DNA of 11,678 nt from the NCBI GenBank assembly GCA_016210495.1, contig JACQUC010000276.1, positions 1 through 11,678 on the forward strand, in the 5' to 3' direction. Shown here one piece after another: positions 653-11,678 of the stretch. Made by a program: the position numbers and the translations under genes. The stretch is from Chloroflexota bacterium. Its GTDB lineage: Bacteria > Chloroflexota > FW602-bin22 > JACPRP01. Under the pieces are notes generated by a model. It made no database searches. It saw nothing but the letters and a program-made list of their open reading frames with translations, and was not told where the DNA came from. The number at the start of each line of letters is the position of its first letter. Within the stretch, counting starts at the first letter, position 1.

Positions 653-2818
653 ATGGCGAATGATACTTTCAAAGACATCGAGAAGTTAGAATCCCATCTC
701 TGGGAAGCGGCGGACAATCTGCGCGCCAACTCCAAGCTCACCTCCAGCGACTACTTCATGCCCGTGCTGGGCGTAATCTTCCTCCGTCACGCCGCGAACC
801 GCTTCGATGCCGCACACAAGCAGATCGAGGCCGACCAGGCGAGCGGCAAGATGCCCAAGCGCAAAGTGCTGCCCGCGGATTACATCGCGCGCCGTTCGCT
901 CTACCTGCCTGAGACGGCCCGCTACGACTGGATAATGCAGCAGGCCGCCGTTAGCGGCGCCGACCTGCCCAAGCTGGTCACCGACGCCATGTCAGCGATC
1001 GAAGCAGACTTCGAACCGCTCGCCGGCGTGCTGCCGAAGGACTACGGCATCTTCGAGACCAAAGTGCTCGAAGACCTGATGCGCCTCTTCAACAGCGAGC
1101 AGATAAGGCAAGCCACCGGCGACGTTTTCGGCCGCATCTACGAATACTTCCTTGCCAAGTTCTCCGTCCAAAAGGCGCACGACAATGGCGAGTTCTTCAC
1201 GCCATCTTCGATAGTCCAGACCATCGTCAACGTCATCGAGCCGGACCACGGCACCGTGTTCGACCCGGCCTGCGGATCGGGCGGCATGTTCGTGCAGTCC
1301 AGCCGTTTCATCGAGCATGAAGGCGGCGACACGGCGAAGAAGGTGGTCTTCTATGGCCAGGAAAAGAACCCCGACACCATTCGCATCGCCAAAATGAACC
1401 TTGCCGTCCACGGGCTGGAGGGGAAGATCGCCGAGGCTATCACCTACTACCAGGACGAGCATACGCTGGCGGGCAAGTGCGACTTCGTGATGGCCAACCC
1501 ACCCTTCAACGTCGACAAGGTGGATGCCGAGCGCGTGAAGGGCGACGTGCGATTGCCCTTCGGCCTGCCGGGCGTGAACAAAGAGAAGAAGGTTTCCAAC
1601 GGCAACTATCTTTGGATCTCCTACTTCTGGGGCTACTTGAACGAGCGAGGCCGCGCCGGCTTCGTCATGTCCTCTCAGGCATCGAGCGCCGGGCACGGAG
1701 AGAAAGAGGTGCGGCAGAAGATCATCGAGACGGGCGACGTCGACGTGATGATCTCGATCCGCTCCAACTTCTTCTACACCCGCAGCGTCCCCTGCGAGCT
1801 GTGGCACTTCGACCGGGCCAAGCCCCCCGAGCGCAGGGACAAGGTGCTCATGCTCGACGCCCGCAACATCTACCGCAAGAAGACGCGCAAGATCAATGAC
1901 TTTTCGCCCGAGCAAATGCTCAACATTGCTGCGATCGTCTGGCTCTATCGCGGGCAGCCTGAGCGCTTCCTCGGGCTGGTGGAGGACTACCTCGGTCGCA
2001 TTTGCGCTGAGAGCTCGGCCTTACCCGCGGCGCTCGCCGGATTCGAAGGCACGCTTGCGGACCTCCGCGGCCGCTTCGACCGTCTCGCGGATTTGGTGGA
2101 TAAGCATGCTGACTTCGACGGCGAGAAGAAACAAGCTATGGTCGCGGCAGTGACGGAGCTGCGGGAGACATCCAGGCTTTACGAGACCGACCGTAGCAAG
2201 CTTCTGGACGGCATCGAGGCATACCTTTCCCGTCATTCCGGCCCTTCGGCGCCACGGTCCCTGAGGCTCTCGAAGGGCGTGGCGCTCAGGGTAAACTACA
2301 ACAACACCCAACATGCTGCCCGCAAGGAGTTCGACCCCCTCGCTGAAGCCATCCGCAGCCTGGTCAAGCAGGTGGACCTGCTCTACAAGCTCGTTGCGCG
2401 CGTAGCCGACTTAGGTGTTGGACTGGACGGTGCTGATCCCATCTTCCCGGCTTACGACCGCCGTTCTACTGCCAGGCTGGTGAAGCGGCTCGACGAGGAG
2501 CGCAAGGCCGCCGTCGAGCAGTTGAAGCGGGCTGGCTACTTCCACCGGCAGGCGGCGTGGCTCCAGGAGCGTTTCCCCAAGGCCGAACTTGAGCCCGTGC
2601 CGGGGCTGGTCAGGCTCGTTGACCGCAAGGAAATAGAGGCTGCGGACTGGAGCCTTACCCCGGGTCGCTACGTCGGCGTCGCCCCGCCCGTGGAGGACGA
2701 GGACTTCGACTTCGAGCAGACCATGCGCGACATCCACACCGAGCTCGCCGACCTGGACAAGGAGGCGGTGGAGTTGGCGGCGAGGATTCAGGAGAACTTC
2801 GAGGGACTGGGGATATGA
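653..2818 (+). CDS. hsdM: Type I restriction-modification DNA methyltransferase subunit (HsdM)
   Basis: This is the N6-adenine methyltransferase subunit of a type I system. It transfers methyl groups from S-adenosylmethionine to the site read by HsdS, in an M2S or R2M2S complex in the cytoplasm. The protein is 721 residues. Residues 1 to ~165 look like the HsdM N-terminal helical domain. The SAM-binding motif I FDPACGSGG lies at 203-211 and the catalytic NPPF at 282-285. The C-terminus (IEAADWSLTPGRYVGV onward) is the usual HsdM tail. Many HsdM proteins are about 500-550 residues; the extra length is a helical stretch at roughly 410-600, which includes a repeat-derived insertion near 530-547. 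The start is the only well-placed ATG, with a weak GGAG 12 bases upstream. Its stop overlaps the next gene as ATGA. All catalytic motifs are intact, so it is probably active. Confidence 0.95.
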   Translation: MANDTFKDIEKLESHLWEAADNLRANSKLTSSDYFMPVLGVIFLRHAANRFDAAHKQIEADQASGKMPKRKVLPADYIARRSLYLPETARYDWIMQQAAVSGADLPKLVTDAMSAIEADFEPLAGVLPKDYGIFETKVLEDLMRLFNSEQIRQATGDVFGRIYEYFLAKFSVQKAHDNGEFFTPSSIVQTIVNVIEPDHGTVFDPACGSGGMFVQSSRFIEHEGGDTAKKVVFYGQEKNPDTIRIAKMNLAVHGLEGKIAEAITYYQDEHTLAGKCDFVMANPPFNVDKVDAERVKGDVRLPFGLPGVNKEKKVSNGNYLWISYFWGYLNERGRAGFVMSSQASSAGHGEKEVRQKIIETGDVDVMISIRSNFFYTRSVPCELWHFDRAKPPERRDKVLMLDARNIYRKKTRKINDFSPEQMLNIAAIVWLYRGQPERFLGLVEDYLGRICAESSALPAALAGFEGTLADLRGRFDRLADLVDKHADFDGEKKQAMVAAVTELRETSRLYETDRSKLLDGIEAYLSRHSGPSAPRSLRLSKGVALRVNYNNTQHAARKEFDPLAEAIRSLVKQVDLLYKLVARVADLGVGLDGADPIFPAYDRRSTARLVKRLDEERKAAVEQLKRAGYFHRQAAWLQERFPKAELEPVPGLVRLVDRKEIEAADWSLTPGRYVGVAPPVEDEDFDFEQTMRDIHTELADLDKEAVELAARIQENFEGLGI
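2241..2291 (+). repeat. Palindromic genomic repeat inserted in frame within hsdM
   Basis: Three perfect inverted-repeat pairs are interleaved: GCCCTTCG (2241-2248) with CGAAGGGC (2271-2278), GCGCCAC (2249-2255) with GTGGCGC (2279-2285), and CCCTGAG (2259-2265) with CTCAGGG (2285-2291). The order is A-B-C-A'-B'-C', so the pairs overlap rather than nest. CTGAGGCTCTCGAAGG (2261-2276) and GCGTGGCGCTCAGGG (2277-2291) recur exactly at 11111-11126 and 11136-11150, where a 9-base spacer separates them. Here the repeat encodes an Arg/Ser/Leu-rich segment at about residues 530-547 and leaves the reading frame open. Confidence 0.8.
2716..2818 (+). repeat. 3' end of hsdM, donor or sister copy of a ~100-bp duplication
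   Basis: These bases correspond to 4001-4103 without gaps. Over the last 96 bases (2723-2818) there are seven differences. Five are silent third-position changes and two are conservative replacements (Val/Ala, Ile/Val). The unit carries the last ~33 codons of hsdM, the GAGGGA ribosome site, and the ATGA that overlaps the next gene's start. Confidence 0.95.
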
Positions 2819-3993
2819 AGAAGACGGATCGCAAGAAGGCTGCGACGAAGACTAAGGACCTGGTTCCTGTTTCCGTTGCTGTCTCGGATCGGAAAAGCCA
2901 GGGCCGCCGGCGTGACGATGCTTCGTTCCCCGTTTCGCCGACCCGCCGAGGTCTCCCCACCGGCTATGCCAATCTGCTGGGAGAGATCAAGCAACGCATC
3001 CGGACCGAGCGGCTGCGAACGGTCATGGCCGCCAATACGGCCATGGTCATGCTCTACTGGGATATCGGCGGCCTTATCCTCCAGCGCCAAGATCGGGAAG
3101 GGTGGGGCGCCAAGGTCATCGACCGTCTATCGGCAGACCTCCGTGATGCCTTCCCCGACATGCGCGGCCTCTCCCCGCGCAACCTGAAGTACATGCGGGC
3201 CTTTGCAGCGGCCTGGCCTGATCCGTCAATTGTGCAACGGGTCATTGCACAAATCCCTTGGCGGACCAACATCGCCTTGCTTGATAAGCTGGGGGATTCA
3301 GCCACACGGTTGTGGTACGCCGAGAGGGCCATCGAACACGGCTGGTCACAGCCCGTCCTGGCATTGCAGATCAAGTCCCGCCTGTACGAGCGTCAGGGGA
3401 AGGCCGTCACCAATTTCCGGGTTACCATGCCGCCCGCAGAATCGGATATGGCCGCACAAGTTTTCAAGGATCCCTACCTGTTCGACTTCCTGGGCACCGC
3501 CGATCCGCGCCGCGAACGGGAGGTCGAGCAGTCCCTCACCGACCACATCCAGAAATTCCTGTTGGAACTCGGCGCCGGCTTCGCCTTCGTCGGCCGGCAG
3601 GTCCATCTCGAGTTCGCTACCGACGACTTCTATCTCGACCTGCTCTTCTATCACCTGAAGCTCCGCTGCTTCGTGGCGGTGGAGTTGAAGGCCGTCCCCT
3701 TCGAGCCGGGATTCGTCGGCACCTTGAACATGTACCTCTCGGCGGTGGATGATTTGTTGCGCCACCCCGACGACAAGCCCTCCATCGGCCTACTGCTTTG
3801 TCGCTCCAAGAACAGGCTGGTGGCCGAGTACGCCCTGCGCGGAATCAAGAAGCCGATGGGCGTGGCCGAGTGGGAAACCCAAGTCACCAAGAGCCTGCCT
3901 GAAGAGCTGAAGGGCAACCTGCCGACGGTGGAGGAGATCGAGGCAGAACTGGCGAGGGACGAAAGATTAGCCGACGACCATGGCGCAAGATGA
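2815..3993 (+). CDS. DUF1016/YhcG-family PD-(D/E)XK nuclease-like protein
   Basis: The 392-residue protein matches the YhcG/DUF1016 family by motifs. It has a basic N-terminal tail (1-45), a helical DUF1016-type N-terminal domain at ~50-195 (ending in an IPWRTNIALLDKLGD-type segment) and a C-terminal PD-(D/E)XK fold. Visible active-site candidates are Asp275 in FYLDLLFYH and Glu290/Lys292 in VELK. The family signature GTLNMYLSAVDDLLRHPDD follows. Such proteins are frequent passengers in type I restriction loci, and their biochemical role is not well established; DNA cleavage is inferred from the fold. The ATG overlaps the hsdM stop (ATGA), with GAGGGA upstream. Its stop in turn overlaps a 37-codon ORF. 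It appears to have been placed between hsdM and hsdS in a recombination that left a second hsdM tail behind. Confidence 0.88.
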   Translation: MKKTDRKKAATKTKDLVPVSVAVSDRKSQGRRRDDASFPVSPTRRGLPTGYANLLGEIKQRIRTERLRTVMAANTAMVMLYWDIGGLILQRQDREGWGAKVIDRLSADLRDAFPDMRGLSPRNLKYMRAFAAAWPDPSIVQRVIAQIPWRTNIALLDKLGDSATRLWYAERAIEHGWSQPVLALQIKSRLYERQGKAVTNFRVTMPPAESDMAAQVFKDPYLFDFLGTADPRREREVEQSLTDHIQKFLLELGAGFAFVGRQVHLEFATDDFYLDLLFYHLKLRCFVAVELKAVPFEPGFVGTLNMYLSAVDDLLRHPDDKPSIGLLLCRSKNRLVAEYALRGIKKPMGVAEWETQVTKSLPEELKGNLPTVEEIEAELARDERLADDHGAR

Positions 3994-4103
3994 GACGGAT
4001 GCAGGCCATGCGTGACATCCACACCGAGCTTGCCGACCTGGACAAGGAGGCAGCGGAGTTGGCGGCGAGGATTCAGGAGAATTTCGAGGGACTTGGGGTA
4101 TGA
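3990..4103 (+). CDS. 37-codon ORF: duplicated HsdM C-terminal tail
   Basis: The frame opens with an ATG at 3990-3992 that overlaps the DUF1016 stop as ATGA, has further in-frame ATGs at 3999 and 4008, and closes with a TGA that overlaps the hsdS start, again as ATGA. From residue 5 on it reproduces the HsdM C-terminus with only conservative changes (M-R-D-I-H-T-E-L-A ... E-N-F-E-G-L-G-V). The predicted product is one charged, amphipathic helix. It may be simply a remnant that keeps the ribosome site and coupling for hsdS. It could also be a translated microprotein that mimics the HsdM tail. No Shine-Dalgarno is evident at 3990, so translation would rely on coupling. Confidence 0.5.
   Translation: MRRMQAMRDIHTELADLDKEAAELAARIQENFEGLGV
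4001..4103 (+). repeat. Second copy of the hsdM 3' end, directly before hsdS
   Basis: This aligns base for base with 2716-2818 (89 of 96 identical from the shared ATG to the stop). Upstream of 4001 the similarity ends abruptly, which marks a junction 8 bases after the DUF1016 stop. The copy preserves the GAGGGA ribosome site and the ATGA overlap, so the hsdS start has the same immediate context as the DUF1016 start. The excess of silent differences suggests that the two copies come from two hsdM alleles that diverged while both were coding. Confidence 0.95.
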
Positions 4104-5302
4104 ATGGCGGGTCGTGGCATACTGTGCGACTTGGTGATCACTGCTCGAAGATCGGCAGCGGGTCAACACCGAGGGGTGGGGAGTCCGTATACCAACAAGA
4201 CGGTGTCTCTTTCATTCGCAGTCAGAACGTCTACAACGGGCGCTTCGCCGAACAAGGGCTGGCTCATCTCGACGAGGAGCAAGCGGATCATCTAAAGGGG
4301 GTGACCGTTGAATCCGGAGACGTACTGCTGAATATCACGGGCGATTCCGTTGCCCGCTGTTGCCGGGTGCCCGATGAGGTGCTTCCAGCACGTGTGAATC
4401 AGCATGTCGCCATCATCCGACCTAAGCCTGGCGAGTTCGATTCTCGCTTCATCGGGTACTTTTTTATATCTCCGTTCATGCAGGACACCATGCTGTCCCT
4501 AGCCGGAGGCGGGGGCACACGGAAGGCGTTGACGAAAGAGATGATCGAACGCTTTGAAGTGCCGCGTCCTCCTCGCCCAGTACAAGAAGCTGTGGCCGAC
4601 ACCCTCTCCGCCTACGATGACCTGATCGAGAACAATCGGCGGCGGATGAAGCTTTTGGAGGATACGGCGCGGCAGCTTTACCGCGAGTGGTTCGTCCGCC
4701 TCCGCTTCCCCGGCCACGAGCACACTCGCGTCACCAACGGTGTGCCGGAGGGGTGGGAGCGCAAAACGCTTGGAGAGCTTGCTGGAATAACGATGGGACA
4801 AAGTCCCGAATCCAAGCATTACAACGAAGACGGGGAAGGCCTTCCATTTCATCAGGGCGTGACGGATTTCGGAGACCGGTTCGTTACGCACCGTATCTAT
4901 TCAACCGCGTTGAACCGCTTGGCCGAGCCCGGCGACATTTTGTGCAGCGTGCGGGCGCCGGTCGGGAGGCTGAATGTGACGCTCGACAAAATCGTAATCG
5001 GGCGCGGCCTTGCTGCCCTTCGAAGCAAGTCAGGGCAACAGTCCTTCCTGTTCCAGCAACTGAGGACGCATTTCTTCAAGGAGGATCTGATTGGCGGGGG
5101 CACGATTTTCGCTTCTGTCACGAAGAAGGAGTTCGCGGCACAGGAGCTGCCGGACCCACCCCAGCGCCTGAAGCGTGTGTTCGAGGAATTGTCAGTTCCC
5201 TTCGACGAGCAAACCCGTTTGTTGCATCTCCAGAACGACAAACTCCGCGCCGCACGCGACCTGCTGCTGCCGCGCCTGATGAACGGGGAGATCGCGGCAT
5301 GA
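4100..5302 (+). CDS. hsdS: Type I restriction-modification specificity subunit (HsdS)
   Basis: HsdS recognises the bipartite DNA target and holds two HsdM subunits, and also HsdR, in the complex. The 400-residue protein has the usual two halves. Target-recognition domain 1 spans about 5-153, opening W-x-x-V-R-L-G-D. A central conserved coiled-coil region runs ~155-206 (DDLIENNRRRMKLLEDTARQ, then LYREWFVRLRFPGHE). Target-recognition domain 2 begins at V215 (VPEGWERKTLGELAG) and ends near 350. The distal conserved helix closes with LRAARDLLLPRLMNGEI. Both domains have the Gly-rich turn near their ends (GGGGT and GGGT). The ATG lies inside the preceding tail copy (ATGA) with GAGGGA 9 bases upstream. 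The DNA sequence recognised cannot be read from the protein. It is full length and looks intact. Confidence 0.95.
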   Translation: MNGGSWHTVRLGDHCSKIGSGSTPRGGESVYQQDGVSFIRSQNVYNGRFAEQGLAHLDEEQADHLKGVTVESGDVLLNITGDSVARCCRVPDEVLPARVNQHVAIIRPKPGEFDSRFIGYFFISPFMQDTMLSLAGGGGTRKALTKEMIERFEVPRPPRPVQEAVADTLSAYDDLIENNRRRMKLLEDTARQLYREWFVRLRFPGHEHTRVTNGVPEGWERKTLGELAGITMGQSPESKHYNEDGEGLPFHQGVTDFGDRFVTHRIYSTALNRLAEPGDILCSVRAPVGRLNVTLDKIVIGRGLAALRSKSGQQSFLFQQLRTHFFKEDLIGGGTIFASVTKKEFAAQELPDPPQRLKRVFEELSVPFDEQTRLLHLQNDKLRAARDLLLPRLMNGEIAA

Positions 5303-7218
5303 AGATCAGGACAATCCGCATTGAGAACTTCAGGAGCTTTCGCGACCAGACGTTATGTCTCAACCGCTACTCGTGCTTTGTCGGGCCGAACGGGGCTGGT
5401 AAGTCAAACATCTTGGCGGCACTGAATGTCTTCTTCCAGGACAGGGCTGCTTCCTCCACAGACGTGAGCAAGCTCACCGACGAGGATTATTTCGGGAAGT
5501 GCACGGACAATCCGATTCGAATCACGCTCACCTTCGATGATCTTAAACCCGCAACGCAGACCGAACTGGCTGCGTATGTACGGCAGGACGGGCTGGTGGT
5601 AACGGCCGAGGCCAAATTCGATCCCACGGCAGGTTTCGGACAGGTGAGGCACTTCGGGCAACGTCTAGGCATAGAGCCACTCAGGGCGTTCTTCGACGCA
5701 GAGAAGGCGGGCGCGAAAGCGGCTGAACTGAACACGATCTATGAGACGCTGCGTTCCCAGTTCCCTGACCTAACAAGCCCCCGATCGAAGGACGACAAGA
5801 TTACGGCGCTTCGACAATACGAAGCGGGCCACCCAGACCAGTGCGTTTTGATCCCGAGTCTGGACGACTTCTATGGCGCCAACAGCACCGGCAAACTGGC
5901 CGCATTCGTGCAATGGGTATTCGTTCCCGCAGTTAAGGACGCAGGTGAGGAAGGCCAGGAAGCAAGAAACACGGCTCTCGGCAGGCTGATTGCGAGAGCC
6001 GTGAGAACGCGGACGAGCTTCGATAGCGAACTCGGAGAACTCAAGACAGACACGCTGGCAAAGTATCGTTCCCTCTTGGAACGTAATCAGGCCAGCTTGA
6101 CTGAGATCTCTCAAGCGCTTCAACGGCGTCTCGAATCTTGGGCCCATCCGGATGTTCGCCTTAACATGGAATGGCTGTCCGACCCAGCGAAGTCCGTTAC
6201 TCTCCAATCTCCGGTGGTTGGCATCAAGACAGGAGAGGGCGATTTCATCGGAAGTCTGGCAAGAATGGGGCATGGCCTACAAAGGTCGTATCTTCTCGCG
6301 CTGCTCCAGGAGCTTGCAGACTCAGATGCCGAAGGTGCCCCGACCCTCATCCTCGGCTGCGAAGAACCCGAATTGTACCAGCATCCGCCTCAGGCAAGAC
6401 ACCTCGCAGATGTGCTCAGCGAACTGTCGTCCGGCAACAACCAGATACTGGTTACTACGCATTCTCCGTTATTCGTCAACGGCGACGGTTTTGAGAACGT
6501 GCGACTGGTCCGCCGCACGAATAACCGTGCAGGCTCGCAAGTCAGCGACCTCAAGTTCACCAATCTGTGTACTAGGATTCGGAACGCTTGTGGCGAAGAC
6601 CAGCAGCGCCCCATCGAGGGTTTGGTGGCCAAGATTCATCAGGCTCTCCAACCTGGCATTGCGGAAATGTTTTTCGCGCGGGTTCCGGTGTTAGTAGAGG
6701 GACTGGAAGATGTCTCCTTTATCACCACGGAATTGCACCTATCTGGGCAATGGTCTGAATTTCGCCGTTTGGGCTGCCACCTGATTCCCGCTAACGGAAA
6801 AAACAAGCTCATTCAGCCATTGGCGATTGCTGTCGAGTTGGGGCTGCCGATCTTCGTCGTTTTCGACGCTGACGAGAATGTCCACAACCCGGACATCCGG
6901 CCCAAGCACGAATGCGACAATCGGGCGCTGATCTCGCTGCTCGGCGCGACTCACCCGCCTTTCCCTCAAGCCAATACCATCGAGTCCAACTACGCGATTT
7001 GGCAGACTAGTCTTGGAGACGCCGTGAAAGCGGACTTCGGTGCAGACTACGACCGTCTCACGAATGCAGCTCGATCCGCCTATGCCAATGAAGGGGGTTT
7101 GGAGAAAAACGACTTGTTCATCGCAGAGTGGGTCGCCGCCGGGCACAACGAAGGCATGACGTCTGCGACGTTACAACAGCTCTGTCGCGCGATCCTTGCT
7201 TTCGCGAGGACGGCATGA
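5299..7218 (+). CDS. OLD-family ATPase with C-terminal TOPRIM nuclease domain
   Basis: The 639-residue protein starts with an SMC/ABC-like N-terminus (MKIRTIRIENFRSF). Walker A is GPNGAGKS (29-36). A signature-like RMGHGLQR lies at 322-329, a Walker-B region EEPELYQHP at 355-363 and the switch histidine in THSP at 387-390. A TOPRIM domain follows, with Glu467 in VEGLED and Asp523/Asp525 in VFDADEN. This is the domain order of OLD nucleases (overcoming lysogenization defect, GajA relatives), which couple ATP binding to DNA cleavage or nicking. No UvrD-like helicase or reverse transcriptase partner is present; instead the gene is coupled to hsdS and hsdR by ATGA overlaps at both ends. GGGGAG eight bases upstream supports this ATG; the frame is open further upstream only as a shadow of hsdS. 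Base composition looks lower in GC than hsdR. RloA/RloB-like restriction-linked proteins are the nearest known analogy. Confidence 0.88.
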   Translation: MKIRTIRIENFRSFRDQTLCLNRYSCFVGPNGAGKSNILAALNVFFQDRAASSTDVSKLTDEDYFGKCTDNPIRITLTFDDLKPATQTELAAYVRQDGLVVTAEAKFDPTAGFGQVRHFGQRLGIEPLRAFFDAEKAGAKAAELNTIYETLRSQFPDLTSPRSKDDKITALRQYEAGHPDQCVLIPSLDDFYGANSTGKLAAFVQWVFVPAVKDAGEEGQEARNTALGRLIARAVRTRTSFDSELGELKTDTLAKYRSLLERNQASLTEISQALQRRLESWAHPDVRLNMEWLSDPAKSVTLQSPVVGIKTGEGDFIGSLARMGHGLQRSYLLALLQELADSDAEGAPTLILGCEEPELYQHPPQARHLADVLSELSSGNNQILVTTHSPLFVNGDGFENVRLVRRTNNRAGSQVSDLKFTNLCTRIRNACGEDQQRPIEGLVAKIHQALQPGIAEMFFARVPVLVEGLEDVSFITTELHLSGQWSEFRRLGCHLIPANGKNKLIQPLAIAVELGLPIFVVFDADENVHNPDIRPKHECDNRALISLLGATHPPFPQANTIESNYAIWQTSLGDAVKADFGADYDRLTNAARSAYANEGGLEKNDLFIAEWVAAGHNEGMTSATLQQLCRAILAFARTA

Positions 7219-10200
7219 TCACCGACATCAACAGCGAAGACCGGCTGGTCCAGCAGACCTTCGCCGAGCACCTGGAAAAGGCGCTGGGCTGGGAAAGCGT
7301 CTACGCCTACAACGCGGAGACCTTCGGGCCAACGGGCACTCTGGGCCGGGCTTCGGAACGAGACGTGGTCCTCGTCCGCGACCTGCGGGCGGCGCTTGCA
7401 CGCCTGAACCCGGAAATCCCCGAATCGGCGTTCGAACAAGCCGTCGAGAAGCTGACCCGCGCCGACCTCGCCCGCTCGCTGATCCAGCATAACCGCGACT
7501 TCTACGCCCTGCTCCTTGGCGGCGTGCCGGTGAACTGGCGCGACTCCTCCGGACCCCGGCACGAGCACGCGCGGGTGGTCGACTTCCGCCACCCCGAAAA
7601 CAACCGCTTTCTGGTCGTGCGCGAGCTCAAGGTCCAGGGCCTGCGCGTGCCGCACTACAACCGGCGCGCCGACCTAGTGTGCTTCGTCAACGGCCTGCCC
7701 CTGGTCTTCTTCGAGCTCAAGGCCGTCTACAAGAACATCCGCCGGGCATTCGATGACAACCTCACCGACTACCTGAGCGAGACCAGCGTCGCCCACGCCT
7801 TTCACCACAACACCTTCCTGGTGGTGAGCAACGGCGACCAAGCACGGTACGGTTCGATCACCAGCAAATGGGACCACTTCGTCGAGTGGAAGCGCAACGC
7901 CGAAAAGGACAAGGCGCGTGTGGACGCCGAGTCCCTGCTCGACGGCATGCTGGAAAAGGAACGCCTGCTTGACCTGGTCGAGAACTTCATCCTCTTCGAC
8001 GACAGCCGCGCCGGGGGCACGCGCAAAATCGTCGCCCGCAATCACCAGGTGCTGGGCGTGAACAACGCCGTCGACTCGGTACTCAGGCAGGAGGAGTTGA
8101 AACGCGAGTTCCCGCCGGGACGACGGATTTCCTACCGGCCTGTGGTCCTGGAACAGATGCCGGAGCCAGAGACTGAGCTGGCCCTCCCCTCGCAGGCGGA
8201 TATGGGGGCGCTCAAGATGTCCTTCGTCGAGAAGGCGCACCCCGACCTCGGCAGGCTAGGCGTGTTCTGGCACACGCAGGGCAGCGGCAAGTCCTACTCC
8301 ATGGCCTTCTTCACCGAGAAGGTGCGGCGCGCCATACCGGGCAACTTCACCTTCCTGCTGGTGACCGACCGGGAGGACCTGGACGACCAGATATGGCGCA
8401 CGTTCATTGGCTGCGGGATAACGGATGAGAAGACGCCGCGAGCAGGCTCCGGTAAGGAGCTGCAAGAAATACTGCGCGGGGACCACCGCTACGTTTTCAG
8501 CCTGATCCACAAGTTCAACCAGCCGGTCAAAGAGCCCTACAGCGAGCGCGATGATATCATCGTCATCTCCGACGAGGCGCACCGCACCCAGGCGGGCAAG
8601 TTCGCCCGCAACATGCGCGAGGCCCTGCCCAACGCCTCGTTCATCGGGTTCACCGGGACGCCGCTGTTCAAGCACGATGAACTGACGCGCCGCATCTTCG
8701 GGGACTACATCTCCCGCTACGATTTCCAGCGCTCCTGGGAGGACCAGTCCACGGTAAGGCTGGTCTACGAGAACCGGGGCGAAAAGCTTGGCATCGCCCG
8801 CCTCGACCTGAACGACCGCATCGCCGAAGCGGTCGAACGGGCCGAACTCGACCCCGACCAGACCGCGTTGCTGGAGAAGCTGCTCGGCAAGGACTACGAG
8901 GTCATAACGGCTGACGACCGCCTGGACAAGCTCGCCGACGACTTCGTGGCGCACAGTTCGACCCGCTGGCAGACCGGCAAGTCAATGTTGGTGTGCATCG
9001 ACAAGATCACCTGTGCGCGGATGCTGCAGCGCATCGAACTGCGCTGGCAGGCCAGGCTCGCCAAGATAAGGGCGCTCATACCGGTCAAGGAAGCGGAGCA
9101 GATCACGTCGGGCGACCCGGATGAGAAGGAGCGTCTTGGCAGAGAGGTGGAGTCACTGCGCGGGCAGGCGCGATGGATGGAGAGCACCATCATCGAGATG
9201 GTCATCAGCGAAGCCCAGAACGAGGTCCGCGACTTCAAGAAGTGGGGCTGCGACATCATCCCGCACCGCGTGGTGATGAAGAACGGTTTCCAGACGCCCG
9301 ACGGCAAGCGTGTGCCGGTAGAGGACGCCTTCAAGGACCCTGATCATCCGTTCCGTATCGCCATCGTGTGCGCCATGTGGCTTACCGGGTTCGATGTTGA
9401 GTGCCTGGCCACCCTCTACATCGACAAGCCGATGAAGGCGCACAACCGGTTGCAGGCCATCGCCCGCCCCAACCGCGTATTCCCGGGCAAGGACTGCGGC
9501 GTAATCGTGGACTACAACGGCATGCTCAAGAGCCTGCGCGAAGCCCTGGCCCAGTATGCCCTCGGCGATGGGGAGCACGCCGGCGGCGGCAACATCGTCG
9601 CGCCGATCGAGGACCTCGTCGCGGCGCTGGTCGAGGCTGTCGAGGAGGCGGAGAACCACCTTCTGAAACTGGGCTTCGCCCCAGGCCACCTGACGGGAGC
9701 GACCGGGTTCAAGCGCATCGAAGCCCTTCATGACGCAGTGGACGCGCTCTACACTTCCGATGAGGCGAAGCGCCGCTTTGAGATCATGGCGCGACAGGTA
9801 TTCGTCCGCTTCAAGGCGCTGCTCATGGAGCCCGGCGCCCTCGCCTACGCGGAGCGCCACGATAACATCGAGGCCATCTACAAGAAGCTCCAGGACAGGC
9901 GCGACACCTCCGACGTGACCGATCTGCTCAAGGAATTGCACCGCATCATCAACGAGGCCATACAGGCCATGCCGGCTCGGATGGTCAAAGACAGCGAATC
10001 CCCCACTTTGGACCTGAGCAAGATAGACCTCGCGAAGCTTCGCGACGAATTCGCGAAGAAGGTGAAGCGCAAGGCCACGGCGCTGGAAGACATTCGAAAG
10101 GTTGTTGAGGACAAGCTGGCGCTGATGCTGCGCTCTAACCCTCAGCGCATGGACTATTACAAACGGTACTCGGAGATCGTCGCCGACTACAACCGGGAGA

Positions 10201-10601
10201 AGGACCGGGTGTCCATCGAGGAGACCTTTGCCAAGCTGGTTGACCTCGCAAGGTCCCTCGATGCCGAGCAGCGGCGAGCGGCCCGCGAAGGCTTGAGCGA
10301 GGACGAACTCGCCCTCTTCGACATCCTCCTCAAGGACAGGCTGACAAAGGTCCAGCGTGAGCGTGTGAAACAAGCAAGCAAGACCCTGTTATCATCCCTG
10401 GGGGACCTGCTCCGGCCGATGAAGGGCTGGACGCAGAAGGCTGCGACACAGGCAGAGGTGAGAGTGTTCATCCTTGACAGCCTTTTTCGATCGCTGCCCC
10501 GGCCGCCGTTCACAGAAGGTGAAACTGAGGAGACTGCCGAGCGTGTGTACGAATACGTCTGGGAGCGCAGTGCCAGCGGCCAGGATCTCGTTGCGGTGTA
10601 G
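7215..10601 (+). CDS. hsdR: Type I restriction endonuclease/translocase subunit (HsdR)
   Basis: HsdR drives ATP-dependent DNA translocation and cuts DNA whose recognition sites are unmethylated. The 1128-residue protein has an N-terminal PD-(D/E)XK nuclease (Asp153 in RRADLV, Glu167 and Lys169 in FFELK) and a superfamily-2 helicase core: Walker A TQGSGKS (354-360), DEAH (453-456), TGTP (480-483) and a motif VI-like QAIARPNRVFPGK. A long C-terminal helical region (DUF3387-like, about 850-1050) binds the methyltransferase core in related systems. The chosen ATG overlaps the stop of the OLD gene (ATGA) and has GAGGA four bases upstream. The frame runs 29 codons further upstream, but that part lies within the OLD gene. 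All motifs are intact and the length is normal for a long HsdR, so the enzyme should be functional. Confidence 0.96.
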   Translation: MITDINSEDRLVQQTFAEHLEKALGWESVYAYNAETFGPTGTLGRASERDVVLVRDLRAALARLNPEIPESAFEQAVEKLTRADLARSLIQHNRDFYALLLGGVPVNWRDSSGPRHEHARVVDFRHPENNRFLVVRELKVQGLRVPHYNRRADLVCFVNGLPLVFFELKAVYKNIRRAFDDNLTDYLSETSVAHAFHHNTFLVVSNGDQARYGSITSKWDHFVEWKRNAEKDKARVDAESLLDGMLEKERLLDLVENFILFDDSRAGGTRKIVARNHQVLGVNNAVDSVLRQEELKREFPPGRRISYRPVVLEQMPEPETELALPSQADMGALKMSFVEKAHPDLGRLGVFWHTQGSGKSYSMAFFTEKVRRAIPGNFTFLLVTDREDLDDQIWRTFIGCGITDEKTPRAGSGKELQEILRGDHRYVFSLIHKFNQPVKEPYSERDDIIVISDEAHRTQAGKFARNMREALPNASFIGFTGTPLFKHDELTRRIFGDYISRYDFQRSWEDQSTVRLVYENRGEKLGIARLDLNDRIAEAVERAELDPDQTALLEKLLGKDYEVITADDRLDKLADDFVAHSSTRWQTGKSMLVCIDKITCARMLQRIELRWQARLAKIRALIPVKEAEQITSGDPDEKERLGREVESLRGQARWMESTIIEMVISEAQNEVRDFKKWGCDIIPHRVVMKNGFQTPDGKRVPVEDAFKDPDHPFRIAIVCAMWLTGFDVECLATLYIDKPMKAHNRLQAIARPNRVFPGKDCGVIVDYNGMLKSLREALAQYALGDGEHAGGGNIVAPIEDLVAALVEAVEEAENHLLKLGFAPGHLTGATGFKRIEALHDAVDALYTSDEAKRRFEIMARQVFVRFKALLMEPGALAYAERHDNIEAIYKKLQDRRDTSDVTDLLKELHRIINEAIQAMPARMVKDSESPTLDLSKIDLAKLRDEFAKKVKRKATALEDIRKVVEDKLALMLRSNPQRMDYYKRYSEIVADYNREKDRVSIEETFAKLVDLARSLDAEQRRAAREGLSEDELALFDILLKDRLTKVQRERVKQASKTLLSSLGDLLRPMKGWTQKAATQAEVRVFILDSLFRSLPRPPFTEGETEETAERVYEYVWERSASGQDLVAV

Positions 10602-10695
10602 GTTGGCGGAGGACGTCGTTGATGTCGTTCCGTCCGCTCATCCTGTCACAGCGCCGAAAATGCATGCCCAAGAGTCCTATTCCGGATTTCGCTGG

Positions 10696-10739
10696 AATCC
10701 ACCATGTCTGCTGCCACAGGCGCCACGTTGTTTGAAAAT
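10696..10739 (+). repeat. 44-bp direct repeat, copy 1
   Basis: Matches 10808-10851 at 36 of 44 positions, including the identical core TGCCACAGGCGCCACG. Differences cluster in the seven bases just after the core. The stem that is perfect in copy 2 is imperfect here. Confidence 0.75.
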
Positions 10740-10780: not shown

Positions 10781-10807
10781 ACGAAGACCAGGGGCGATTT
10801 TCGGGGT

Positions 10808-10851
10808 AATCCCCCATGCCTGTTGCCACAGGCGCCACGAAAGATGAAAAT
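10808..10851 (+). repeat. 44-bp direct repeat, copy 2
   Basis: Second copy of the repeat at 10696-10739. It contains a perfect hairpin: GCCTGT (10818-10823), loop TGCC, ACAGGC (10828-10833). The two copies flank the pyrimidine tract. Confidence 0.75.
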
Positions 10852-11058: not shown

Positions 11059-11062
11059 GATT

Positions 11063-11151
11063 CCTGAGCCTGTCGAAGGGCGGTCCCTGAGACGGTTCCT
11101 GAGGGGGCCCCTGAGGCTCTCGAAGGACTCGAATGGCGTGGCGCTCAGGGG
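11063..11151 (+). repeat. Cluster of CCTGAG-type palindromic repeats
   Basis: CCTGAG occurs four times (11063, 11086, 11098, 11110), first within CCTGAGCCTGTCGAAGG (11063-11079). The last unit forms a stem: CCCCTGAG (11108-11115) with CTCAGGGG (11144-11151). Two blocks, 11111-11126 and 11136-11150, are identical to the repeat inside hsdM. Located just downstream of rpiB, it might also act as a weak transcript end for that gene, although no T-run is present. Confidence 0.8.
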
Positions 11152-11174: not shown

Positions 11175-11615
11175 CTAGCCTCGCTCGATGCTCGTCATTT
11201 TCTCGACCCGGCGGGCGTGCCGCCCGCCTTCAAAAGCGGTGGTCATGAAAACTCTGAGTATCTCTTCCGCGGCTCGCTTCTCGACTACTTCCGCTCCCAG
11301 GCATAGCACGTTGGCATCGTTGTGTTGTCGCGCCCTGCCCGCGGTGAAGACATCATGGCACAACGCAGCCCGCGCACCATTGACCTTGTTCGCTGCAATG
11401 CTCATGCCGATGCCGGTACCGCAAATCAGTACCCCCCGGTCTTCCTTCCCTGCCACGACGGCCTGCGCCACCTTGCAGGCGACATCCGGATAATCAACCG
11501 GCGCCTCGTCGTACGTGCCCAGATCGTCACAGGTGTGCCCGAGCTCCACACCATAGATGATCAAATCGCGCTTCAGGTCTAGCGCACGATGATCGCAGCC
11601 AAATGCTATGCGCAA
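11175..11615 (-). CDS. rpiB: Ribose-5-phosphate isomerase B
   Basis: RpiB interconverts ribose 5-phosphate and ribulose 5-phosphate in the pentose phosphate pathway. The 146-residue product matches the family along its whole length: N-terminal MRIAFGCDH with the conserved Asp-His, the ILICGTGIGMSIAANK-like loop (here VLICGTGIG) bearing the catalytic Cys, the RQHNDANVL segment with the second conserved His, and C-terminal FEGGRHARRVEKM. I chose the TTG at 11613-11615 because it gives the usual M-R-I-A-F start and has GGGAGG seven bases upstream (11623-11628). A TTG 18 bases earlier would add an untypical six residues. The start lies within the end of the preceding gene, which indicates coupling. 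Related sugar isomerases (LacA/LacB) share the fold but the motifs favour RpiB. Confidence 0.93.
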   Translation of the reverse strand: MRIAFGCDHRALDLKRDLIIYGVELGHTCDDLGTYDEAPVDYPDVACKVAQAVVAGKEDRGVLICGTGIGMSIAANKVNGARAALCHDVFTAGRARQHNDANVLCLGAEVVEKRAAEEILRVFMTTAFEGGRHARRVEKMTSIERG

Positions 11616-11678
11616 AGTCCTGCCTCCCGACAAATTTGCAGGATCGTCTCCTTGGCGATGGCGCCCTCTCTAATCACC
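11606..11678 (-). CDS. C-terminal end of a Sua5/YwlC-like threonylcarbamoyl-AMP synthase (partial)
   Basis: A minus-strand frame enters from the right edge and reads V-I-R-E-G-A-I-A-K-E-T-I-L before ending in TAG at 11606-11608, ten bases inside the rpiB start. The (L/I)REGAI motif close to the C-terminus is typical of the Sua5/YrdC/YwlC family, which makes threonylcarbamoyl-AMP for the t6A modification of tRNA. A sua5-type gene near rpiB is a known arrangement (for example ywlC and ywlF in Bacillus). Only 23 residues are visible, so the call rests on that motif and the neighbour. Confidence 0.6.
   Translation of the reverse strand, partial: VIREGAIAKETILQICREAGLCA

What the first reader, a model, noticed from the sequence alone, without database searches (positions are those of the whole stretch)
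3990..4103. Duplicated HsdM tail forms a 37-codon ORF coupled to both neighbours
The sequence shows a near-copy of the hsdM 3' end between the DUF1016 gene and hsdS, opened by an ATG that overlaps the DUF1016 stop and closed by a stop that overlaps the hsdS start, both as ATGA. Five of seven differences from hsdM are silent. That argues for selection on the protein, either earlier in a separate hsdM allele or now as a microprotein. In type I enzymes the HsdM C-terminus takes part in contacts with HsdS, so a free tail could compete for or tune assembly. This last step is inference; simple retention of the hsdS ribosome site is the plain alternative.
Basis: partly seen in the sequence, partly recalled or inferred. 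Interest (0 to 1): 0.75.

Follow-up and report, generated by a model that had tools for sequence, protein, structure and literature searches.

The report
Spare hsdM tail bridging to hsdS
In a bacterial DNA-defence operon an extra nuclease gene sits between two normally overlapping genes, and a spare 37-codon copy of the first gene's end lies in front of the second gene, most likely to keep its translation coupled; related loci in distant bacteria show similar spare ends.

Summary
In detail: 2716-2819 (hsdM 3' end) and 4001-4104 match at 96 of 104 bases, in frame, and the 37-codon ORF 3990-4103 overlaps the DUF1016 stop and the hsdS start, both as ATGA. It is not private to the window: among 131 small proteins listed by two searches, 26 are 37 aa long and align without gaps as a 7-residue leader plus a 30-residue HsdM tail. 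Of 76 loci examined, 39 have hsdS directly overlapping hsdM, 14 could not be classed, and in 22 cargo or a gap lies between hsdM and a confirmed hsdS. In 15 of these 22 the last 36 bases before hsdS match the hsdM end at 25-35 positions. The cargo differs; the copy is often eroded from its 5' side, while the ribosome-site end stays. Best reading: because hsdM and hsdS share four bases, cargo can enter only if the hsdM end exists twice; the spare end is a translated bridge that restores termination-reinitiation onto hsdS. It probably derives from another hsdM allele, though this is less sure. An HsdM-tail microprotein is not favoured: residues that HsdM keeps are lost in the N-half of many relatives. 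Translation itself was not tested.

The parts
653..2818 (+). hsdM, 721 aa (N6_Mtase, HsdM_N)
   Evidence: Pfam and PADLOC matches
2716..2819 (+). repeat copy 1: 3' end of hsdM with the ATGA shared with DUF1016
2815..3993 (+). DUF1016 / YhcG PDDEXK nuclease gene, 392 aa, the cargo between hsdM and hsdS
   Evidence: PF06250 and PF17761; PADLOC PDC-S02
3990..4103 (+). 37-codon bridge ORF: 7-residue leader plus HsdM-like tail, ATGA overlaps on both sides
   Evidence: PADLOC type I methyltransferase profile matches its residues 5-37 at profile positions 621-653 of 653, E 0.00012
4001..4104 (+). repeat copy 2, 96 of 104 identical to copy 1
4086..4091 (+). GAGGGA, likely Shine-Dalgarno element of hsdS, 8 nt before its ATG
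   Evidence: read from the sequence; role inferred
4100..5302 (+). hsdS, 400 aa
   Evidence: PF01420, PADLOC Specificity_I
5299..7218 (+). OLD-like ATPase with TOPRIM, 639 aa
   Evidence: PF13175, PF20469; PADLOC Old
7215..10601 (+). hsdR, 1128 aa
   Evidence: PF04313, PF18766, PF11867; PADLOC REase_I

Best explanation
The 37-codon ORF is a translated bridge. hsdM and hsdS of this family normally share an ATGA, and hsdS is presumably read by ribosomes that terminate on hsdM. A gene can enter between them only if the hsdM 3' end exists twice: once to finish HsdM (now overlapping the cargo) and once to lead into hsdS. Here DUF1016 entered, and the spare tail stayed in front of hsdS. Ribosomes finish DUF1016, re-start at the overlapping ATG, read 37 codons, stop at 4101-4103 and re-start on hsdS. 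Shown: the anatomy, its recurrence with different cargo, preferential survival of the ribosome-site end. Inferred: the translation events, and that the spare tail came from another hsdM allele by recombination.
For: 39 of 76 loci have hsdS directly on hsdM, 38 of them with NTGA. In 22 loci cargo or a gap separates hsdM from a profile-confirmed hsdS; in 15 of 22 the last 36 nt before hsdS match the direct consensus at 25-35 positions. Of 13,413 NTGA-anchored windows in 77 loci 92 reach 22 of 36; 91 are hsdM ends or hsdS junctions and the other is one more tail copy, in L034. Agreement is 0.34-0.57 in blocks from -66 to -31 and 0.67-0.83 from -30 to -1. In window, L008, L007 and L047 the bridge begins on the ATGA or GTGA that ends DUF1016 and is 37, 37, 37 and 39 codons long. 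In print: reinitiation needs overlap or a very short gap, and the last 15 nt of the upstream gene suffice (PMC10666635, abstract and section 7); EcoKI hsdM and hsdS overlap and are coupled (PMC3510504, passages).
Against: No expression data. In 7 of 22 cargo/gap loci the 36 nt score only 16-22 (L018, L041, L067, L073, L004, L035, L056), so an hsdM-derived end is not required; there other genes or short frames end on hsdS. NTGA also occurs at 42 of 73 other large ORFs, so the overlap alone is weak evidence, and in L056 the frame ending on hsdS offers only 3-4 codons after a start. Folding of the junction RNA shows no unusual structure (z 0.03, -1.04, -1.08, -0.47), so no structure-opening mechanism is seen. 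The 37-residue length and strong C-half conservation would also fit a peptide.
Confidence: 0.72

Rival explanations
1. The ORF encodes a functional microprotein: the detached HsdS-binding end of HsdM, which competes with or tunes HsdM-HsdS assembly.
For: 26 listed proteins of exactly 37 aa in two main leader groups; E20, L24, A25, I28, Q29, N31, F32, E33, G36 unchanged in 26 of 26; only 2 replacement changes in the window copy; the tail covers most of a predicted terminal helix 687-718, in a poor model.
Against: HsdM-conserved residues are lost in the N-half: R8 is C in 10, H11 is R in 7, L14 is P in 3 of 26, against R 109, H 115, L 113 of 115 HsdM tails from the protein collection. Loci with intact hsdS keep only the last part (L039, L042, L048, L060, L064, L065). 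hsdS-proximal conservation is what a ribosome site predicts.
Confidence: 0.12
2. Neutral scar: the copy is left from insertion or recombination and does nothing; hsdS starts by itself.
For: L007, where no hsdS was recognised, has a strongly changed copy (more replacement change than all 295 hsdM pairs of like silent divergence).
Against: 15 of 22 loci with intact hsdS keep the same 36 nt with varied cargo; erosion is uneven and spares the hsdS side; the frame is unbroken in all 26 aligned 37-mers, which were, however, found as ORFs.
Confidence: 0.12
3. On origin, not function: a fresh local duplication (slippage, or a target-site or attachment-site repeat of a mobile element) made the copy in place when DUF1016 inserted, and no other hsdM allele was involved.
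For: In the window the nearest tail to copy 2 is its own copy 1 (0.92). Own is also nearest in L060 over 93 nt (0.48, eroded), and over the last 45 nt in window, L064 (tied with L001), L060 and L048 (4 of 12 loci compared). Junctions cluster near the RDIH codons: 38 of 113 visible joins.
Against: In L008, L007, L020, L047 other loci's hsdM tails are nearer than the own one over 93 nt (ranks 5, 9, 3, 23 of 76). The window's first copy is nearer to L016 (0.94) than to its second copy. Silent divergence of the two copies is 0.25-0.63 and replacement change lies in the hsdM-hsdM range in 4 of 5. I noticed no integrase or transposase gene in the window (not searched for systematically), and cargo differs between loci.
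Confidence: 0.25

Closest known systems
Termination-reinitiation at 4-nt gene overlaps (Huber et al. 2023, PMC10666635; abstract and section 7 read)
   Same: ATGA overlap; a short 3' piece of the upstream gene is enough for coupling
   Different: Here the 3' piece is a separate small ORF behind an inserted gene, not the end of the original upstream gene
EcoKI hsdM-hsdS coupling and the proposal that HsdM-tail DNA entered type IB HsdS (PMC3510504; passages and section 22 read)
   Same: hsdM/hsdS overlap and coupling; a duplicated HsdM tail
   Different: EcoKI overlap is 1 nt; in the type IB proposal the tail is fused into HsdS, here it is a free ORF in another frame
Cargo in type I operons: prrC (PMC3874165), TgvAB (PMC11411939), DarTG2 (PMC12255303); passages read of each
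   Same: A further defence gene inside an hsd operon
   Different: DarTG2 lies between hsdS and hsdR; the passages read mention no duplicated joint piece
Attachment-site repeats of islands that integrate in 3' gene ends (recalled)
   Same: The gene end is restored and a spare copy lies on the far side of the insert
   Different: No integrase gene noticed in the window; copies behave like diverged alleles; cargo is a single gene

Membership tests
Translationally coupled gene pair (termination-reinitiation) | Stop and start overlap by 4 or 1 nt | tested here: met
   ATGA at 3990 and 4100
Translationally coupled gene pair (termination-reinitiation) | Downstream translation depends on translation of the upstream ORF | not testable with these tools
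   needs reporters or ribosome profiling
Type I restriction-modification locus | hsdM, hsdS and hsdR together | tested here: met
   Pfam and PADLOC
Functional microprotein | Protein-level constraint along the peptide | tested here: inconclusive
   C-half kept, N-half broken in many of 26; DNA of the protein hits not available
Functional microprotein | Expression as a peptide | not testable with these tools
   no expression data
Type IB-like HsdS with captured HsdM tail | Tail read in the HsdS frame as part of HsdS | tested here: not met
   the tail is in another frame and ends at the hsdS ATG
Mobile-element insertion with target or attachment repeat | Near-identical repeats made at insertion | tested here: inconclusive
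   92% in the window with allele-like changes; other loci lower

The most novel reading that the evidence does not exclude
Cargo gene plus bridge form an exchangeable cassette: the tail copy is both a homology arm for recombination into any hsdM-hsdS pair of this family and the element that restores coupling, so accessory genes can enter and leave a tightly overlapping gene pair without breaking it. Recombination between the two in-register copies would remove DUF1016 and leave an intact hsdM-hsdS joint.
Probability: 0.3. Interest if true: 0.75.

Novelty: new variant of a known kind. Interest (0 to 1): 0.55.

Why it matters
It gives a concrete answer to how a gene can be inserted between overlapping, translationally coupled genes: the joint itself is present twice and the spare copy becomes a small bridge ORF. 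It also warns that a conserved small ORF beside coupled genes may be a coupling device and not a microprotein, and it offers a marker for finding cargo in type I loci.

Tried and rejected
Not chosen: the competitor peptide, the neutral scar, the fresh local copy (see rivals). RNA folding of four junction stretches showed nothing unusual. The HsdM model was poor (mean pLDDT 53.9; 36 sequences, the others 80-85% identical to the first) and is a hint only; I ran no fold search. DNA searches of plasmids, phages and E. coli genomes with 3960-4110 found nothing. In viral contigs the DUF1016 query found no relative and the tail queries found only tails with HsdM sequence upstream. Searches of 245, 250, 395, 246 and 2 genomes gave 5, 3, 17, 6 and 1 genomes with a match, some already known. 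I fetched 30 stretches and examined 29 (L108 left out; some repeat earlier loci). One of 29 (L099) has a second tail copy, behind a transposase-like frame, with no hsdS recognised after it; a weak match on the other strand of L098 (E 0.008) was taken as chance.

Flaws that shape the numbers. The pattern was meant to leave out full hsdM tails but does not (it matches both copies in the window), so L001-L074 are a sample of hsdM genes, and the pattern fixes part of the N-half of their tails. Filters-54 further require D at position 9 and I or V at 10 in the 69 locus tails (7 of 76 dropped) and a short list there in the 115 collection tails (5 of 120 dropped). I therefore use positions 8, 11 and 14 of the collection tails as the control, and the hsdM-hsdM replacement rates are probably low. 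Ten of the 26 changes most visible at position 8 and the I-to-V changes at 10 (8 of 26) were seen, but position 10 is not used as evidence. One search's DUF1016 search failed on an option and its 'none' line is void; one search repeats it. One search stopped on a register error after printing the per-locus counts; one search repeats the rest. L007 was first counted as having hsdS; one search found none, so it is outside the 22, though it is in the 23-site position profile. hsdS starts in the cargo loci were set by hand at the NTGA. Of the 17 of 76 loci above z 4.5, L018 and L070 have matches away from hsdS taken as chance, and the L030 and L042 matches are extra tail-like pieces upstream of the junction copy.

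My first report draft said that the own hsdM is the nearest tail only in the window; one search shows it also for L060 over 93 nt and for L064, L060 and L048 over 45 nt. I mended this and raised the local-duplication rival from 0.2 to 0.25.

Literature searches. I saw no description of a duplicated hsdM tail as a separate ORF in those listings or in the passages read; most subscription journals are not held, and one search failed. The names GIY-YIG, ORF6N, Y1/REP-associated transposase, GxxExxY and RpiB are recalled from the sequences and come from no profile search.

Full report
What is there. The window carries a type I restriction-modification operon: hsdM (653-2818), a DUF1016/YhcG nuclease gene (2815-3993), the 37-codon ORF (3990-4103), hsdS (4100-5302), an OLD-like ATPase gene (5299-7218) and hsdR (7215-10601). 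Neighbours overlap by ATGA. The hsdM end 2716-2819 recurs at 4001-4104 with 96 of 104 bases equal and no gap; the score lies about 61 standard deviations above 60 shuffles.

The ORF is not private. A search with the ORF plus three upstream codons gave 27 small proteins, one of them the window's own. A profile search gave 824 at E up to 1, with only the 7990 candidates sharing most words scored and 120 listed. Of the 131 distinct proteins in the two lists, 26 are 37 residues long, the commonest length. All 26 align without gaps as 7 leader plus 30 tail residues, mostly in two leader groups, MRR(V/M/L)Q-like and MSAIEGF-like. Many longer hits have HsdM sequence further upstream. 113 of 131 show a join within the 69-residue consensus or at its edge; 44 of these reach its first two positions, and 38 fall at codons -34 to -27 from the end. 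Similarity ranking shaped these lists.

DNA context. One pattern scan gave 74 genome loci; with one viral contig and the window this makes 76. hsdS was recognised by a profile grown from the window's HsdS. 39 loci have hsdS directly on hsdM, 38 with NTGA; 14 could not be classed; 23 have cargo or a gap, of which 22 have a profile-confirmed hsdS and L007 has none. In 15 of the 22 the 36 bases ending at the overlap match the direct consensus at 25 or more positions: window 30, L008 35, L016 30, L020 29, L047 30, L050 28, L064 31, L060 28, L039 31, L065 35, L048 25, L042 30, L006 29, L030 26, L036 28. The other seven score 16-22: L018, L041, L067, L073, L004, L035, L056. Controls: 3000 random windows reach at most 18; of 13,413 NTGA-anchored windows in 77 loci 92 reach 22, of which 91 are hsdM ends or hsdS junctions and one is a tail copy in L034. 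Record titles of the 14 related loci with copies name Nitrospirae, Neomarinimicrobiota, Planctomycetes (two), Verrucomicrobia (Opitutales), Chloroflexi, Deltaproteobacteria, Bradyrhizobium, Limnohabitans, Methylococcaceae, Thiobaca, Thiocapsa, Lamprocystis and one spirochaete name that looks misassigned.

What is kept. At the 23 cargo/gap sites agreement with the direct consensus is 0.40, 0.34, 0.51, 0.41, 0.57, 0.55 in blocks of six from -66 to -31, then 0.73, 0.67, 0.67, 0.83, 0.72 from -30 to -1, and 0.96 at the overlap; in direct loci the upstream blocks are 0.75-0.91. The most reduced remnants show little beyond the last dozen codons (L065, L048, L042, L006). In window, L008, L007 and L047 the bridge begins on the ATGA or GTGA ending DUF1016, with 37, 37, 37 and 39 codons. 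L060 also starts its bridge there, with 25 codons. L036 has a 37-codon ORF from an ATGA after different cargo; the codons before that ATGA resemble a DUF1016 end by eye. In L004 and L035 unrelated short frames run from the hsdM ATGA to hsdS (25 and 49 codons). In L018, L041, L067 and L103 (L071's genome) the DUF1016 gene itself ends on hsdS. So coupling of some upstream frame to hsdS is the common theme, and the hsdM-derived end is the commonest way.

Why not a microprotein first. Against 115 HsdM tails of the protein collection (R8 in 109, H11 in 115, L14 in 113), the 26 mini-ORFs have C8 in 10, R11 in 7 and P14 in 3. E20, L24, A25, I28, Q29, N31, F32, E33, G36 are unchanged in 26 of 26. The constraint thus sits towards hsdS. 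A peptide acting through its C-half is not excluded.

Origin of the copy. The window copies differ by 5 silent and 2 replacement changes at 20.3 silent and 72.7 replacement sites; by hand, 5 or more silent of 7 has a chance of about 0.007 if changes fell evenly. 156 of 170 hsdM pairs of like silent divergence have at least as much replacement change. L008, L020 and L047 lie within the hsdM-hsdM range (84 of 194, 502 of 1135, 277 of 770 pairs at least as high), and L007 exceeds all 295; the pattern and filters probably lower the hsdM-hsdM rates. Over 93 nt the own hsdM is nearest in window and L060 of 12 loci compared; ranks elsewhere are 5 (L008), 9 (L007), 2 (L016), 3 (L020), 23 (L047) and lower or uninformative for eroded copies. 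Over the last 45 nt it is nearest in window, L064 (tied), L060 and L048. The window's first copy is nearer to L016 (0.94) than to its second copy (0.92), although the hsdM bodies match at about 75% over the 844 bases aligned. I read this as favouring recombination between hsdM alleles for the full-length copies; the sequences are short and the evidence is mixed.

Mechanism and print. [quoted passage not shown] coli pairs (PMC10666635, abstract and section 7). EcoKI hsdM and hsdS overlap by 1 nt and are coupled (PMC3510504 passages). The same paper proposes that HsdM-tail DNA was taken into HsdS and duplicated in type IB (section 22), the nearest precedent. Cargo inside type I operons is known (passages).

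Limits. Nothing here shows translation. hsdS starts in cargo loci were set by hand. Independence of events is judged from differing cargo and titles, not from a tree. The HsdM model is poor: its last helix (687-718) covers most of the duplicated tail, with block confidence 35-65.

Verdict. A real and recurrent feature; best account a translational bridge made from a spare hsdM end (0.72); microprotein 0.12; neutral scar 0.12. New variant of a known kind; interest 0.55.

Noticed in passing
window 2221-2320: HsdM carries a longer stretch (SGPSAPRSLRLSKGVALRVNYNN) than the 13 other rows viewed; its DNA shares 17- to 23-base repeats with 11059-11150 (CCTGAGGCTCTCGAAGG), so a dispersed repeat seems to have been taken in-frame into HsdM. 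Some homologues have SRESGNP-like residues at the same place, also repeat-like.
   Followed up: partly
window 10687-10739 and 10799-10851: Two direct copies of a 53-nt sequence, 79% alike, downstream of hsdR.
   Followed up: no
window 11175-11633, - strand: 152-aa ORF resembling ribose-5-phosphate isomerase B (recalled, no profile search).
   Followed up: no
L016, 5281-5343 and 6091-6159: Two additional tail-like pieces downstream of one hsdM, with cargo between, as if insertion had happened twice.
   Followed up: partly
L006, L030, L042: Palindrome-like repeats (GTAGGGGCGAATTCATTCGCCCC) sit at the altered hsdM end and next to the tail copy before hsdS.
   Followed up: partly
L036, hsdM stop to +1013: Cargo looks like a GxxExxY protein (recalled) while codons resembling a DUF1016 end and a 37-codon bridge remain before hsdS.
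   Followed up: partly
proteins P0007, P0008, P0226 and others: A second class of 37-residue mini-ORFs with a conserved MSAIEGF leader; the upstream gene is unknown. Unexplained.
   Followed up: no
proteins P0025, P0026: HsdM-tail fragments lacking the residues EQTLRDIHT, the zone where many tail copies begin.
   Followed up: no
L020, just after hsdM: Only a short DUF1016-like fragment remains (98 aa ORF), with a transposase-like ORF after it, yet the tail copy before hsdS is long.
   Followed up: partly
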